A stretch of 64,000 nucleotides of DNA. It comes from Tubiluchus corallicola (lineage: Eukaryota > Priapulida > Priapulimorpha > Priapulimorphida > Tubiluchidae). This document shows, piece after piece, positions 5,828 to 36,678 of the stretch; the first letter of the stretch is position 1; every line of letters begins with the position of its first letter. A program made the position numbers and the translations under genes. Below the pieces are notes generated by a model. It was not told where the DNA came from. It did no database searches and saw only the letters and a list, made by a program, of their open reading frames with translations. The DNA lies in assembly GCA_030141605.1 (NCBI GenBank), contig JAQGDQ010000188.1, positions 1 to 64,000 on the forward strand. The letters run 5' to 3'.

Positions 5828-7331
5828 TAATTAATCAGTTAAAGGTGTGTGGTGTACACTGTAATTAATCAGTTAAAGGTGTGTGGTGTGCACTCTAATT
5901 AATCAGTTAAAGTTATGTGTGTGATGTACACTCTAATTAATCAGTTAAAGGTGTGTGGTGTGCACTCTAATTAATCAGTTAAAGTTATGTGTGTGGTGTG
6001 CACTCTAATTAATCAGTTAAAGTTATGTGTGTGGTGTGCACTCTGATTAATCAGTTAAAGTTATGTGTGTGGTGTGCACTCTGATTAACCAGTTAAAGGT
6101 GTGTGTGTGGTGTGCACTCTGATTAACCAGTTAAAGGTGTGTGTGTGGTGTGCACTTTGATTAACCAGTTAAAGGTGTGTGTGTGGTGTGCACTTTGATT
6201 AACCAGTTAAAGGTATGTGTGTGGTGTGCACTCTGATTAACCAGTTAAAGGTGTGTGTGTGGTGTGCACTCTGATTAACCAGTTAAAGGTGTGTGGTGTG
6301 GTGTGCACTCTGATTAACCAGTTAAAGGTGTGTGTGTGTGGTGTGCACTCTGATTAACCAGTTAAAGGTGTGTGTGGTGTGCACTTTGATTAACCAGTTA
6401 AAGGTATGTGTGTGGTAACCAGTTAAAGGTATGTGTGTGGTGTGTACTCTGATTAACCAGCTAAAGGTGTGTGTGTGTGGTGTGTACTCTGATTAATCAG
6501 TTAAAGGTATGTGTGTGTGGTGTGCACTCTAATTAATCAGTTAAAGGTGTGTGTGGTGTGCACTCTGATTAATCAGTTAAAGGTGTGTGTGGTGTGCACT
6601 CTGATTAATCAGTTAAAGGTATGTATGTGGTGTGCACTTTGATTAACCAGTTAAAGATATGTGTGTGGTGTGCACTCTGATTAACCAGTTAAAGGTGTGT
6701 GTGTGGTATGCACTCTGATTAACCAGTTAAAAGTGTGTGTGTGGTGTGCACTTTGATTAACCAGTTAAAGGTATGTGTGTGGTGTGCACTCTGATTAACC
6801 AGTTAAAGGTATGTGTGGTGTGCACTCTGATTAACCAGTTAAAGGTATGTGTGTGGTGTGCACTCTGATTAATCAGTAAAGGTGTGTGTGTGGTGTGCAC
6901 TCTGATTAACCAGTTAAAGGTATGTGTGTGGTGTGTACTCTGATTAACCAGTTAAAGGTGTGTGTGTGTGGTGTGTACTCTGATTAATCAGTTAAAGGTG
7001 TGTGTGTGGTGTGCACTCTGATTAATCAGTTAAAGGTATGTATGTGGTGTGCACTTTGATTAACCAGTTAAAGATATGTGTGTGGTGTGCACTCTGATTA
7101 ACCAGTTAAAGGTATGTGTGTGTGGTGTGCACTCTGATTAACCAGTTAAAGGTGTGTGTGTGGTGTGCACTTTGATTAACCAGTTAAAGGTGTGTGTGTG
7201 GTGTGCACTTTGATTAACCAGTTAAAGGTATGTGTGTGGTGTGCACTTTGATTAACCAGTTAAAGGTGTGTGTGTGATGTGCACTCTAATTAATCAGTTA
7301 AAGGTGTGTGTGTGATGTGCACTCTGATTAA
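5828..7331. repeat. ~38-bp GT-rich minisatellite, about 40 copies
   Basis: About 1.5 kb of imperfect units containing TGATTAACCAGTTAAAGG followed by a variable (GT)n run and GGTGTGCACTC. Unit length varies between about 32 and 42 bp because of the GT run. Two sub-families (ATTAATCAG and ATTAACCAG) are arranged in blocks. The array lies between the convergent DGAT1 and KCTD genes. Confidence 0.93.
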
Positions 7332-8397: not shown

Positions 8398-11300
8398 TCA
8401 AGACGGTACCAGCTGCTTACACAAAATGTATTCACAGAACTGCTGGCCTTCCACTCCGCCACCTGTTGATGCTACTATTTTAAATCCACCACTAAACAAT
8501 CTTTGGAAAACCTGCAAAACACCAGAAACTTTATTCAAATGTCAATAAACAAAGTGTTAGTATCTATGTACTGCCATTACTCCAGACTAATTCAGTTCTA
8601 ATTGTTTCCATGGCTACTAAGACAGTGCAATAAGCAGTGGCAGCTCGTGGCTAAAATTAGTGGGGTGCTGCTTCAGAAAATTTTAGCTGTTGTTTTAATA
8701 CTGTGTAAAATGAAACAAACATATGCAGTTTTAATGCTGTAATTGTAATTTTAAACAAAGAAACATACAAAAATTTATACATAAACTTGGTAAAATCCTA
8801 AATATATAATATTTTTTGTTTACGAATAGCCCAAGTTGTCGCAGCCTAAATGGTACACAGTTTTTAAACTCGTGACAACTGACGACACAGACTGTGTGAG
8901 TGACAGTGCTTTCTCTACCTGGAGTGCAGCATCTTATTTCAGACATGGCCGCATGCGCACAACAGCCAAACACCATGTTGTTGGACCTGTGAAGTGCACA
9001 GTTCTGTCATGTGCTGTATTGGTTGACATCCTTCTGTCTCGGAAGACAATGGAGTGTGCGTCAAGAGAGTCAGTTATTGATCACATTGATGGAGCTGCAG
9101 CGTCGACTGTGGCTGAGCAGTGCGATCCTTGAACGTCTCCAGGGCGCACGCCTGGGCAAGGTGTATGGAGATCCTGAGTTGCCCAGACAACAGGAACCCC
9201 CTCTCTTCCTCCCTGGTGTAATCCAAAGGAAAGTGGAGCAATACGTTTGGCACCAGGTTGCCTGCAGGAGCTGCCGGATTCAGTGAGCATGCTGCACTGG
9301 TCCACCTTCGGGGCTCCACTCCTGATTTGGAAGGTGTACTCCTCTACACATGACCGTTGGGTCACTTGACCTCCTCCGCCCTCTAGCCGTTGGCTGCTTG
9401 TGCAGCTCCTCCGCCTAGTGTCGAGATACAGTGTGGGCATCCCGCAAGCCCACAGCACCTGGTATTCCTAGGCGGTCACCCATCCAAGTACTAACCAGGC
9501 TCTACGTTGCTTAACTTTGGTGATCAGACAAGAACTGGTGTTTTCAACGTGATTTGACCGTAGTCATGTGAGCTGTATAGCACATGTATAAAGCAACAAA
9601 GAAAAAACTCATTATATTGAATATTATCGATGATATTGAGTGAAAATGAGGGGTGGTGCTGTTCCACATTGCCTATACACCAACCGCCACTGACAATAAG
9701 TATTGTGTAACAATGAAGTTATGCATAAGACATTTAAATTGTCGTTAACAAAATACTATTGCAAGGTATGTATGAACAAGATTTTCACTCACCTGTATAG
9801 AATTCAGTTTACAATAACCGTTGATAGGAAAACGAATGACGTAGTACGGATCTTGATTCCAGCCGGTGTTTCGGCCATCCATCAGCGACTGTCCAGTCTC
9901 CGGGAATAACTCCTCGATCGTGTTCCGGTCCCCACTGAGTGTGATTCTCTCTCCGAGATCGGGCGACACGTGCATTGATATGCACTCGTAATCAGCCTTT
10001 TCACTGTGTGTGATAGTCTAGAAAATAATCATCAATGAGATCTGTTTCACAAACTTGAAATAGCAAATATGAAATCACCGCTGTTCAAGGAAAATGCGTG
10101 ATTTTTCAGCTCCGATCATAAAGCTCAGCAAAAAATATAGATTTTATCAACTATAATAATGAATTATGAATTTATTCCACAGCAACTCAAACATACATAT
10201 AAATTTATATAACATTGAAAAAAATAAACTATGCGAGTTACTGTGAGGAGGAGGAAGGAGCATTGAGCTTTCGAGTCCTCCTCCAGATAAGTGAAACAAT
10301 TGACAATTAACATTACATTTTCATCAGTCGTAACGTACATTAGAACAAAATAAGTTTTGTTAGTAACTTAAGATCAGAATTAGTAAAATTTTGAGTTAAT
10401 TATACCGTTGTAGTAGGTAATTCGTTGATGCTTTTTTAAATTGATAAAGATTAAGAGTTATCTCATGATTAAGAGATTCATTTCACGCGGAATTGATGAC
10501 CATATTTTAATAGGATTATATTTTGATGACTGTTTCATTATATTTGTTTTTGGAAGAGGGAGTACATAGTTTCCGACTGAACATCTCGTGTAATGATCAT
10601 GTTGATTTGAAACTGGACTAAAGTATGACTGAAAAGCTGGTGGAAGTAGTGAATTATGATACTGATACATGAAATGAAGACAATACATGTCATATATTTC
10701 TTTCACTTTAAGAGTTTTAACAGACAAGTAAATTATATTTGTGGGATGGTCATACCTTACATGATATATCAGTTTGAGAATTTTGTTCTGGGTAATTTGT
10801 AAAGCTATAATGCCAAGGTGTTTCTGATAATTAAATATTCACCTGAAAACTTAATTAACCACAAAGCTTAACCCTTTCACTATGGAAGGCGGCACACTGC
10901 TGCCTATGTTTCTCACGGAAGGGACCGAAGGCAGTCCCCAACCTCAGCACTAAGTGCAGTCACTCAAGTCTGTTTATTTCACTGATATGGCCATGCAAAA
11001 ACATTGCAGAAAAATCTAACGTCCATGGGATTTGGTTTGCTTTACAACACTGAAGCCAGGTGCATTCCACAATACTGTACTGTATGGTATGTTCCCATGC
11101 AAAATAATTTGTGCATTGTTGATGCGACAGGTGTTTAGTTGATAGTTCTGCATTCTTATAAAATGATTGTATATTATGGATTAGTAATGTGTCTTTTGTG
11201 AAAACTGGTTTCTAAATATAAAATACATGCTTATTTATGATTGTATGCACGTGCGTGCGTGTGTGTGTGTGCACGTGTTAGTGCATGTATGTGTGCTCAT

Positions 11301-14300
11301 ATGTGTGTGCATGTGGAGAAATAAAGCTAATATTTAATATTAGTATTCAATAACAAACAACTATGTGTTTATTTACAAGATTCTGATTTAGTAACACACC
11401 GCAAGAAGTTATTGTCAAATGTGCAAAAGTCAATGTGGCCCAGTTAATAAGCAACAATGTAGTGAAAGGGTTAAGCACAACTAGTGATGACGTCACAACT
11501 GCACATAATTCTTAAATCAACGAGCGTGTTGCTCTTGTTCACACAACTGAAAATTGAAATATGCAGTGCTACTGTCAGCATTTACTATGATTTTTACCAA
11601 TTCGGGAGAGTTTAAGTGAAAAAATTAAAATCCAGCCTCACCGCTGGAACAATTCATGGTTTCAACACAAGTGTATGCTACATTCGAACTAAACTGAGAG
11701 GTACAGCATCTATTTTTTGTGAAACACGTAATAATGCATAACAATAATAATAAGGCAATGCTTTAATAATTCTTACACATTAATCATTCTTGAAGAAACA
11801 CCTTTTTTCAATATTTTACACTCACAATAATTTTTGCTATGGTTTAACATTGGGTTTGTTTTTTCTGTAATTGCTTCTTATATTTTTACTCTGGTAATTC
11901 TTAGATGCAGAATGTCCCGTAAAATTTGTTTTTTTCACTCGGGTCTCATACCCGTGGAATTCCCTACTTAAAAATTGTTTCCTTGTTAGCTACTCATGTT
12001 TCATTATCTGTATTCATATTCAAACTGGTTTTGTTTGATCGATTTGTGTCAAAAAAACCTTTGCACCTAGTTGCTACTTGAACAGTCACTTTATCAGAGC
12101 GGAAAATGATTCATACCTTTTTCTTTGTAAAATTGTTTCTTTTATATTCTTCAAGGTCACGAATCATCGGTGTAATGTCATAGTACTTGGCTTCTTCATA
12201 CAGCATGTGAAAGTGTCGGAAATTGTCCGGTAATAACAACTGCCCTGTCCGTAAGTAGGACAAGATGTATCTGAAAAAGTTACATATTTATGAAGCTTTA
12301 AACACGACAAATGAAACTGCTGATACAAATTATGATGTGATAACAAGCCTTTTCACAGTTCCAGCGATTGATGATGATTGTGAAAAGGTCAAAGGTTGTG
12401 TGCACCAGACAATGCATTACTGTGCACTTGACAACGTCTCGCAACTCGTACTGTTGTCATAGTAACAGTTTTAACAGCTAGCTAGAATCTTACCTAGTTC
12501 ATTTTTTTGTTCTCAAACAAGATCCTACTAGTAAATCACTCTGCACACAAAGTAATGCATAAGTAAAAAAGTCCACATACAACAACTGAAGTGATGCAGA
12601 AGACGGCTTTGCTTTACCCACATGCCATGTGACGGTTGTAGTCAAGATGCATTGCTGTGGTACACTTTAGCTGTGACCTACAGCAACTGCGCATGCACAC
12701 AACGAAACTGTGAAAAGGCTTAATCTCTACAATTGCAATATTCAGCATTTATAAAATGTTCTCGTATAGCAGGCAGCTTGTAATGTACGTGAATGGTATC
12801 ATCAGATCACTTGTGTACCAGATTCAAACCCTAAACGTATTTCTGTTACAAATGTAGAAGTTCAAGATCGTGGCGGGTGTTTGTGAACAAAAATTCTCTG
12901 TTTCACTGAATTTCTGGCAAAACTTGTCAAATTTGTCAGTTTTATTTTAATTTAGCTTAAATGCGTTTTACTAAAAAAGACGAAAAATACCTGGACCCAC
13001 AAAACCCGTAACTGTTTACTGAATCCGAACTGTGCCAAATTCACCGAATCTATACGTTTGATTCACCAGATTTTGTGCTTACACACCTGAACATTTCATG
13101 CTTACACACCTGAACATTTCATGCTCATGCACCTGAACATTTCATGCTTACGCACCTGAACATTTCATGCTTACGCACCTGAACATTTCATACTTACACA
13201 CCTGAACATTTCATGCTCATGCACCTGAACATTTCATGCTCACACACCTGAACATTTCATGCTTACGCACCTGAACATTTCATGCTCATGCACCTGAACA
13301 TTTCATGCTTTCACACCTGAACATTTCATGCTCATGCACCTGAACATTTCATGCTTTCACACCTGAACATTTCATGCTTACGCACCTGAACATTTCATGC
13401 TCACGCACCTGAACATTTCATACTTACACACCTGAACATTTCATGCTCATGCACCTGAACATTTCATGCTTATGCACCTGAACATTTCATGCTTACGCAC
13501 CTGAACATTTCACGCTCATGCACCTGAACATTTCACGCTCATGCACCTGAACATTTCATGCTCACACACCTGAACATTTCATGCTTACGCACCTGAACAT
13601 TTCACGCTCATGCACCTGAACATTTCATGCTTACGCACCTGAACATTTCATACTTACACACCTGAACATTTCATGCTTACACACCTGAACATTTCATGCT
13701 TACACACCTGAACATTTCATGCTTACACACCTGAACATTTCATGCTTACACACCTGAACATTTCGTCCTTACACACCAGAACATTTCATGCTCATGCACC
13801 TGAACATTTCGTGCTTACACACCTGAACATTTCATGCTCACGCACCTGAACATTTCATACTTACACACCTGAACATTTCATGCTCATGCTCATGCACCTG
13901 AACATTTCATGCTTATGCACCTGAACATTTCATGCTCATGCACCTGAACATTTCATGCTCACACACCTGAACATTTCATGCTTACGCACCTGAACATTTC
14001 ATGCTCATGCACCTGAACATTTCATACTTACACACCTGAACATTTCATGCTCATGCACCTGAACATTTCATGCTTTCACACCTGAACATTTCATGCTTAC
14101 GCACCTGAACATTTCATGCTCATGCACCTGAACATTTCATACTTACACACCTGAACATTTCATGCTCATGCACCTGAACATTTCATGCTCATGCACCTGA
14201 ACATTTCATGCTTACGCACCTGAACATTTCTTATGCACCTGCATTTCATGCTCATGCACCTGAACATTTCATGCTCACACACCTGAACATTTCATGCTTA

Positions 14301-17300
14301 CGCACCTGAACATTTCATGCTCATGCACCTGAACATTTCATACTTACACACCTGAACATTTCATGCTCATGCACCTGAACATTTCATGCTCATGCTCATG
14401 CACCTGAACATTTCATGCTTATGCACCTGAACATTTCATGCTCATGCACCTGAACATTTCATGCTTTCACACCTGAACATTTCATGCTTACGCACCTGAT
14501 CATTTCATACTTACACACCTGAACATTTCATACTTACACACCTGAACATTTCATGCTTACACACTTGAACATTTCATGCTTACACACCTGAACATTTCAT
14601 GCTTACACACCTGAACATTTCATGCTCATGCACCTGAACATTTCATGCTCATGCTCATGCACCTGAACATTTCATGCTTATGCACCTGAACATTTCATGC
14701 TCATGCACCTGAACATTTCATGGTTTCACACCTGAACATTTCATGCTTACGCACCTAAACATTTCATACTTACACACTTGAACATTTCATACTTACACAC
14801 CTGAACATTTCATGCTTACACACCTGAACATTTCATGCTTACACACTTGAACATTTCATGCTTACACACTTGAACATTTCATGCTTACACACTTGAACAT
14901 TTCATGCTTACACACCTGAACATTTCGTGCTTACACACTTGAACATTTCGTGCTTACACACTTGAACATTTCGTGCTTACACACCCGAACATTTCATGCT
15001 TACACACCTGAACATTTTTCCATCTCTGTCCAAAAAGTAGTGTTGTTTTAGACTATCCAGCACAATTGGAATGCTTCCATTGAAAAAGCGAGCCAGCCGT
15101 GACTCCGGATATCTGAAAGAAAACAAATACGATCATTCAATGTTATTTCTGCAAAGTTCTAATATTATTCTGAATGTGCAGTGTGAAATTTGCCCTCCTA
15201 GTTGCTTCTTTATTACAAATTCTCACAAACCAGGCCTGGTAATAGAAAGCTGAAAATATAAAAATTAGTCCAGAAAAACCGGATTTTTATAACTAATTTG
15301 CTTGTGGTAGGACATACATACCTGCTAATCTTCTTGAATCATACGAGGTTATATATATATATAATTTGCAGGTTTTCTTTTACTGAATTCCACAGATAAA
15401 AGGCACGAGGTAAATACTGAATTTAATAAGCATGTATTTGTTCTGCATCTGGGAATTAGGAATTCCCGGACTAATGTTATGAGAAACAGCAAAAAATGAG
15501 CTCTGCCAGTAACATGTCAGCAGTTAGAAACCCACGGAGGGATGTCCCGTGAAAGTTTCTCTCTGAGCAATTAGATTTAAATTCAGGGATTATTCATTAC
15601 CTAAGTTTAAATGCAAAACACCAAAAACTACACGTGCCTTGTTAGAGTTTCCAGGGAAGAAGTATAGAGAGTTCCACCGATGTCGATGTGTACGGGAGCC
15701 GAGTATCTGGATGCTGCAGCAACACAGGGGATCCCGGTGATTTTTGGACTATAACATTCATCCTGTAAATGACTGGAGGTAGGAGACCTGAAAAAATTCA
15801 TTGCATTGAATAAATCTGCTTTTCTTAGGGTTGCCAGATTGGAAAATTAGAAATACGGGACACTCGTCAAATCTCTCTGTATATTACTATGTATACATAA
15901 ATTTACATGTGCGTACACACCCACCCACACCAATACAATTTTTATTATAAAAGTAGACACAAGTTAAAAATATAAAGCAAGTTGCAAACAGGCAGCAAAC
16001 AAGCCAGTCTGAGAAACCATCTGCAACTTTAGTTTCCTCGTTACATTTCAGCTAAATGCATTATGCATTAGATCAGAAGAACTCGAATAGTTACTACTAA
16101 TCTGTGAATGAACTTTCCTACTTTGGCCTCTTGAAATAAAGCTTTTTTATATTTTATTTGATCTGTTGTAGTGAGTAGCCAAGTGGTTATTGTTGTAACT
16201 ACCACAGGGTGCTTTTAACTCTAAAATACTCAGTCATAGCATCCACAATAACTCACTCTTAGTAACTTTATTCACTTTAAAAATTAAAATAGGCCTACAA
16301 ACAGAAGTCTTCAACAAAATTATGATGCTACTCCATCTGGAACACAATTCAGTAACAGAAATCTTTTTGACAGCTGTTATAACTGGGCACACCTACAGTT
16401 GTATATGTTTAGCAACAAAGTTAAGCAACATCAAGTTTGTCTGTGAATGGATAGGTGACTGCATGATTCTAGGTGGCATATTTGCTAGTGCTTGCAGGTC
16501 GTTACCTCGGTGAAGAAGGATCTACGGAACATTATCTGTTGTTTGTTAACAAATAACAGCCAAAATCCTGAGATTTACATGAAACAGTGTGCGATCATTG
16601 TGCTTGCTCTTCTGCAATACAAAACTGCTGGATTTGTGAAAATATAAATGTGATACTAATATTAATATATTCATGACTGAAAATGACTCACATGGAGTGA
16701 CAGTATACTGGTGTACTTACAGGAGGATAAGAACTCCCGTTTTAATTCCCAGACTCAACAGAGTTCAACACTTCACTGTCTCCCACTCCCAGCAGTTCAG
16801 CACTTCTCAGACCCCCAGCACTTTAACATTTCCCAGACACCCAGCGATTCAATACTTTCCAGTCTCCTAGCAGTTTAGCACTGGTATTTCTCAACTTCCA
16901 TTGAATTTATGATTTCAAAAAGGTAACCTAGGTCTATAATCTCTTCGTACTTTCTTAAAGCAGATATTAAGAGCTCACCACGGTGTAACTGCAAACATGT
17001 GAGCTTTGAACGTTGTTAAATAACTATTTTTGTTCACCCCCGCAAAGTAAATTCACGCTTGTCCCTTTAGAATCACAGCTACGAAGCCCCATAGGAAAAT
17101 TTTAGCCAGTTAACATGATAACCGCCCTCTACAGGCCAGATCGCGTAGAGTACTTCACATAATGAGTAAATTCTTCACCTATTCATTATTCCAACTTTGC
17201 TTTGTGTCCTGGACGTTTAACCTTTTCAACTAGAAAGTGAAGGTTTGTTACTTTCCAGGTTTTGCTTAGACCTATCGGTGTGCCATGTTTGGTGAATTAG

Positions 17301-31927: not shown

Positions 31928-36678
<4,751 letters not shown>

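What the first reader, a model, noticed from the sequence alone, without database searches (positions are those of the whole stretch)
13077..15112. A minisatellite built from a 5' splice site: KCTD intron 3 begins with about 84 tandem copies of the exon 3/intron 3 junction
In gene sense (- strand) exon 3 ends ATGTTCAG and the intron starts GTGTGTAAGCATG. The next 1.9 kb repeats AATGTTCAG|GTGTGTAAGCA every 23 bp, so the array is an expansion of the junction itself, including coding bases. Most copies keep CAG|GT, many with a good donor context (GTGTGT, GTGCGT). The splicing machinery therefore faces one authentic donor followed by dozens of near-identical decoys. Because 23 is not a multiple of 3, and a stop appears in the second unit, use of a downstream copy would usually truncate the protein inside the BTB domain. 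The array could act as a U1 snRNP platform, a splicing regulator, or a copy-number-variable switch. Expansion through an exon border is unusual.
Basis: partly seen in the sequence, partly recalled or inferred. Interest (0 to 1): 0.85.

Follow-up and report, generated by a model that had tools for sequence, protein, structure and literature searches.

The report
Minisatellite seeded at a splice site
In an unidentified animal, one intron of a KCTD1/15-like gene begins with 84 tandem copies of its own exon-intron boundary; similar arrays sit at the start of introns in several other genes there, and the type is known from lancelets, so it looks like a by-product of DNA repeat expansion rather than a new splicing device.

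Summary
On the minus strand, exon 3 (15112-15008) of a KCTD1/15-like gene ends AAATGTTCAG|GTGTGTAAGCATG, and this junction is repeated 84 times in 23-bp steps (13076-15017). The spliced exons align with KCTD1 through the junction. Of 83 intronic copies, 74 keep AG|GT and 25 have the true donor's 9-mer.

It is not unusual in this genome. Triple-tandem CAGGTRAGT gives 5.7 hits per 100 single occurrences, against 0.8-1.2 for three control words. The one acceptor word tried showed no excess over its reversed control. Of 12 arrays read whose units looked non-dispersed, 7 begin on a coding-exon end: 5 with homology support, 2 on open frames.

This matches lancelet 'mirages', reported to leave splicing normal. 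Best explanation: a tandem duplication across the donor was tolerated because the exon-proximal donor stays in use, and the intronic copies then expanded as a minisatellite. Tests for selection on decoy donors were inconclusive. U1-platform or switch roles have no evidence but were not tested by RNA. The species is unidentified, so whether this lies outside cephalochordates is open.

The parts
15638..15787 (-). KCTD1/15-like coding exon 2 (150 nt); its donor reads AAG|gcacgt, a GC donor by homology
   Evidence: splice reading; BTB_2, KCTD1
15008..15112 (-). coding exon 3 (105 nt), ending ...GATGGAAAAATGTTCAG; its last 10 nt form part of the repeat unit
14999..15010 (-). authentic 5' splice site CAG|GTGTGTAAG (first intron base 15007)
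   Evidence: none of the 83 downstream copies gives an open frame through exon 4
13076..15017 (-). junction-seeded minisatellite, 84 units of (G)AAATGTTCAG|GTGTGTAAGCAT, 23 bp; 21 unit types
12271..15007 (-). intron 3 (2737 nt), about 71% of it array
12117..12270 (-). coding exon 4 (154 nt), acceptor actttttcag|ATACATC

Best explanation
It is a 'mirage'-type minisatellite. A short tandem duplication spanned the exon 3/intron 3 donor. Because the exon-proximal donor is the one that keeps the reading frame and is presumed to be used, the duplicated stretch, coding bases included, fell into the intron and was free to expand by slippage or unequal exchange to 84 copies. Shown: array anatomy, junction register, coding homology, no exact copy of the unit elsewhere in the assembly, other genes with the same anatomy, donor-word excess with none for the acceptor word tried. 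Inferred: use of the first donor, neutrality of the copies, expansion mechanism.
For: The junction is part of the unit and the exon side encodes conserved KCTD residues, so the exon is the source. All 10 exact genome matches to one 22-nt version of the unit lie in this array. Other introns show the same anatomy: PDCL3 (array starts -26 relative to the donor), dynein heavy chain (-13), MROH-like (-36), HSP60 (-17), ANKRD13 (-24). Triple-tandem hits per single occurrence: CAGGTRAGT 469/8170; controls CAGTGRAGT 71/6000, TGARGTGAC 32/4134, TGARTGGAC 34/3468. Acceptor word TTTTTCAG 161 vs reversed control 1099, not normalised to singles. Recurring unit types fit minisatellite turnover. Lancelet mirages are reported not to disturb splicing (passages).
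Against: No RNA data. The clustering of copies without AG|GT among copies 2-12 (7 of 9; nominal 2.6e-6, but neighbouring copies are not independent) could mean selection against nearby decoys. Donor positions were slightly less variable than the rest in 5 of 6 arrays (one noisy; no significance test), which could mean the opposite. Of 12 arrays read as non-dispersed, 4 showed no convincing exon (C161, C265, C30, C232) and one (C480) is only plausible. Hits cluster in arrays and are not independent. The acceptor control may be inflated by a satellite. The 5-7-fold per-occurrence excess suggests something may favour donors beyond tolerance.
Confidence: 0.75

Rival explanations
1. The array is a functional splicing element: decoy donors recruit U1 snRNP, or copy use produces truncated, NMD-targeted KCTD transcripts as a dose switch.
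For: 74 of 83 copies keep AG|GT and 25 of 83 equal the true donor's 9-mer; all 83 downstream copies would bring a stop; in 5 of 6 arrays donor positions varied slightly less than the rest (one noisy).
Against: In the KCTD array itself donor positions vary more than the rest (0.12 vs 0.074); 29 of 84 units carry CAG|GTGCAT, weak by a recalled matrix; similar arrays lie in unrelated genes; lancelet mirages are reported not to generate aberrant mRNAs.
Confidence: 0.1
2. Donors are mutational hotspots: a process tied to transcription or splicing at 5' splice sites (pausing, R-loops, breaks) actively starts tandem duplications there, rather than duplications simply being tolerated.
For: 5-7-fold more triple-tandem hits per occurrence for the donor word than for three control words; no excess for the acceptor word tried; arrays also start about 13 bases after an HSP60 donor and 54 bases after a DUSP3-like donor, both read by eye.
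Against: Selective tolerance at donors versus exons and acceptors could give the same bias; the total number of donor arrays was not counted (about 100 of 469 hits listed); no expression data.
Confidence: 0.3
3. A mobile element carrying a minisatellite inserted at the junction.
For: Dispersed donor-bearing minisatellites exist here: AAGGTGAGTCAGTGGTGCACACTGGG-like units make up 10 of the 16 arrays in the listed AAG-donor hits, and C195 and C507 share a TTTGGTAC unit by eye.
Against: All 10 exact matches to one version of the KCTD unit lie in this array, and the unit contains the exon's own coding bases.
Confidence: 0.03
4. Assembly artefact: the copy number is inflated or the array misplaced.
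For: Inverted exon-plus-array copies at two other arrays (C338, C1015) could be foldback artefacts.
Against: No N in the window, 21 distinct unit types, no inverted copy within 6 kb at KCTD, same anatomy at several loci.
Confidence: 0.04

Closest known systems
Amphioxus 'mirages' (minisatellite-like tandem duplications of exon/intron boundaries: Adh3, globins BflGb6 and BflGb9, TnC, PGBD5)
   Same: Tandem units spanning an exon/intron boundary; unit sizes 10-72 bp in Adh3; AG/GT kept in many but not all units (PMC3087553 and PMC3902484, passages read).
   Different: Another gene, and possibly another phylum; 84 copies; the bias found here is to the 5' splice site, while lancelet examples include 3' boundaries. 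Length polymorphism and RNA were not testable here.
Intron gain by tandem genomic duplication (AGGT duplication)
   Same: Duplication of an AG|GT-containing stretch.
   Different: There the duplication creates a new intron; here an existing intron lengthens (the age of this intron was not tested). Known from search listings and the starts of abstracts only (PMC4974935 and others).
Intronic minisatellites linked to alternative splicing (C. elegans CeRep25B)
   Same: Minisatellite in introns near splicing decisions.
   Different: A repeat shared between genes, not derived from the gene's own junction (PMC4039745, passages).

Membership tests
Mirage (as described for amphioxus) | Tandem repeats span an exon-intron boundary | tested here: met
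   Array starts 10 nt inside exon 3; exon identity by KCTD1 alignment
Mirage (as described for amphioxus) | Many but not all units carry splice signals | tested here: met
   74 of 83 intronic units keep AG|GT
Mirage (as described for amphioxus) | Seen at several loci of the same genome | tested here: met
   7 of 12 arrays read as non-dispersed begin on a coding exon end, 5 with homology support, one of these below its curated cut-off
Mirage (as described for amphioxus) | Length instability between haplotypes or cells | not testable with these tools
   One assembly; exact matches at one locus only
Mirage (as described for amphioxus) | Regular splicing at the authentic site | not testable with these tools
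   No RNA; 0 of 83 downstream copies would keep an open frame through exon 4
Mirage (as described for amphioxus) | Host is a cephalochordate (where the reports seen come from) | tested here: inconclusive
   No GFP match and no molluscan haemocyanin match, both with the tool's warning that this does not show absence; no COX1 match and no 18S start; the 5S-like copy looks lophotrochozoan from recall only; window GC 36.2%
Mobile-element minisatellite | Same unit at many loci with shared flanks | tested here: not met
   10 of 10 exact genome matches to one unit version lie in this array; diverged copies elsewhere were not searched for

The most novel reading that the evidence does not exclude
In an animal that is not a lancelet, 5' splice sites are genome-wide birthplaces of minisatellites, through a process tied to the donor itself rather than through tolerance alone, so introns grow from their 5' ends by copying exon-intron junctions.
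Probability: 0.25. Interest if true: 0.75.

Novelty: new member of a known kind. Interest (0 to 1): 0.5.

Why it matters
It turns something described gene by gene in lancelets into something measurable in one genome: donor-word arrays exceed three control words several-fold and the acceptor word tried shows no excess. That makes it testable whether introns lengthen preferentially from their 5' ends, how splicing ignores dozens of equal-strength decoys (a natural test of donor choice by position), and whether donors promote tandem duplication.

Tried and rejected
Mobile-element origin of the KCTD array: rejected on exact matches at one locus and exon bases in the unit. RNA hairpin: no signal in the first 181 nt. 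Selection on decoys: six arrays compared, donor positions slightly less variable in five and more variable in KCTD; inconclusive, since the SULT row is noisy (its anchor also hit outside the array), some registers are off by one or two bases and no significance was computed. An earlier profile was anchored on the donor itself and is not used. Inverted copy at KCTD: none in the 6 kb tested. Species identification by COX1, GFP, haemocyanin, 18S start and an assembly-size text search: nothing usable. Text search for recalled 5S primer strings: empty. Weak or contrary matches: the C5 exon alone gave only E 5.7 to PDCL3 before the two-exon join; the C467 exon's best PDB match was a repeat protein at 0.00077 with no single stretch passing, SULT2B1 only at 0.25; the HSP60 exon had no Cpn60 match in Pfam (best GIP1_N 0.091) although the PDB match is clear; the C195 Kunitz match is below its cut-off. 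The original mirage paper (Canestro 2002, PMC117041) is not held, so it is known here only through citing papers. The listings showed no report of such arrays outside lancelets, but most listed papers were not opened, among them the tandem-duplication intron papers. PMC12783039 (earthworm metallothionein, passages) describes intronic minisatellites and exon duplications; no junction array was seen in the passages.

Full report
Observation. The 23-bp array is real: TRF 13076-15017, 83.9 copies, score 2749; 84 units by splitting, the first being the exon end plus true donor. Twenty Markov resamples of the window gave a maximum TRF score of 64. The window has no N, and about 11% of it lies in tandem arrays with period at least 10 and score at least 100, so this stretch is minisatellite-rich. 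The contig is 419,499 bases long.

Gene. Exons 2 (15787-15638), 3 (15112-15008) and 4 (12270-12117) join in frame into a BTB_2 domain (8.5e-18) closest among solved structures to KCTD1 (6.6e-47). The alignment runs without gap through the exon 3/4 joint (DGKMFRYIL versus DGQMFRYIL), which fixes the donor as CAG|GTGTGT. The last 10 exon bases (AAATGTTCAG) are in the repeat unit. Since they encode conserved residues, the exon is the source and the intronic copies are derived (inference).

Decoys. In register, 74 of 83 intronic copies keep AG|GT. Of all 84 units 26 read CAG|GTGTGT (25 of them decoys), 14 CAG|GTGCGT and 29 the weaker CAG|GTGCAT (scores use a recalled human-like matrix). Seven of the 9 copies without AG|GT lie among copies 2-12; the nominal probability is 2.6e-6, but one change copied by duplication could explain it. 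Use of any of the 83 downstream copies would bring a stop before the end of exon 4: 82 in unit 2, one (copy 2) by frameshift. There are 21 unit types; block recurrence is only slightly above the shuffled 95% level (0.23 at lag 31 against 0.21).

Genome-wide. The window's genome is held (343,548,820 bases, 2344 contigs). Three copies of CAGGTRAGT with 3-33 bp gaps: 469 hits; reversed word 34. Single occurrences: 8170 and 3468. A composition-matched word with GT broken, CAGTGRAGT: 71 triple hits on 8 contigs, 6000 singles; its reverse 32 and 4134. Rates per 100 occurrences: 5.7 against 1.2, 0.8 and 1.0. AAGGTRAGT gave 311 against 107, much of it one dispersed unit. The acceptor word TTTTTCAG gave 161 against 1099 for its reverse; singles were not counted and it is the only acceptor word tried. 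Hits cluster in arrays and are not independent. The listed CAG hits (about 100 of 469) are 9 arrays and stop at C507, position 224 kb; the broken-GT control has no array before that point.

What the arrays sit on. I read flanks of all 9 listed CAG arrays and of 9 of the 16 listed AAG arrays. I set aside C195 and C507, which share a TTTGGTAC unit by eye, and C29a, C48, C962 and C1169, which share a 26-bp unit (three of these four also share an AT-rich flank, by eye). Twelve arrays remain whose units I did not see elsewhere in the listings (uniqueness was not searched except for KCTD). Seven start on the end of a coding exon: PDCL3 (C5; the spliced join matches solved PDCL3 at 1.8e-20), dynein heavy chain (C173; DHC_N2 2.9e-8), HSP60 (C29; 2.9e-21 to its last residue; next exon found by motif), ANKRD13 (C1015; 9.6e-11), a MROH-like HEAT exon (C338; 7.7e-5, below the curated cut-off), and, on open frames only, a sulfotransferase-like exon (C467; SULT2B1 0.25) and a 37-residue exon-like frame (C217; no family match). 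C480 is plausible (73-codon frame; Ependymin 0.049). C265, C161, C30 and C232 showed no convincing exon. The homology-supported arrays begin 13 to 36 bases inside the exon, KCTD 10, C467 7 and C217 4.

Function or not. Across six arrays, donor positions were slightly less variable than the rest in five (one noisy) and more variable in KCTD: inconclusive. The first 181 nt showed no RNA structure. For lancelets, papers state that mirages appear not to interfere with regular splicing (PMC3087553, passages; PMC3902484, passage). The simplest account is that duplications spanning a donor are tolerated because the first donor still yields the right protein, whereas those inside exons or across acceptors more often change it. 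The per-occurrence excess leaves room for a donor-coupled mutational process, which I cannot separate from tolerance with these data.

Known or new. This is the mirage phenomenon by each structural feature I could test. The species could not be named: no mitochondrial COX1, no exact 18S start, no GFP and no haemocyanin matches, the last two with the tool's warning that absence is not shown. A 5S-like copy (9447-9565) looks lophotrochozoan to me from recall only. If the genome is not cephalochordate, it widens the known range; I saw no such report in the listings, most of whose papers I did not open.

Noticed in passing
window 36093-36678 (+): A DUSP3-like gene (E 5.1e-44) ends in a 146-bp x 4 array whose first copy contains the last 124 coding bases, the stop codon (36217-36219) and 3' sequence: a second exon-seeded array in the window.
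   Followed up: partly
window 32104-32775 (+): A 26-bp x 26 array begins 54 bases after the donor of the DUSP3-like first exon, near but not across the junction.
   Followed up: partly
window 5845-7331 (+): A 38-bp x 40 array with AAG|GTGTGT in its first units; the frame before the first copy is open for only 32 codons, no homology tested. Possible junction array of an unknown gene.
   Followed up: partly
L054 2764-4009 (HSP60): A later HSP60-like exon (read by eye) is followed about 13 bases after its donor by a 22-bp x 55 array.
   Followed up: partly
L042 with L056 (C338), L048 with L055 (C1015): Exon plus array occur again nearby as inverted copies (92% over 787 bp; 96% over 209 bp): real foldback duplication or assembly artefact.
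   Followed up: partly
G000 C29, C48, C100, C101, C567, C707, C874, C916, C962, C1169: A dispersed 26-bp minisatellite like AAGGTGAGTCAGTGGTGCACACTGGG on 10 contigs of the listed hits; three of the four flanks read share an AT-rich stretch, so it may be carried by a mobile element.
   Followed up: partly
window 9447-9565 (-) and 9017-9499: A diverged 5S rRNA-like copy (95 bits) next to, and partly overlapping, a dispersed repeat also found in L039 and L054 at 92-96%: maybe a 5S-linked SINE or pseudogene.
   Followed up: partly
window 15626-15645 (-): KCTD exon 2 appears to use a GC donor (AACAAG|gcacgt) by homology.
   Followed up: no
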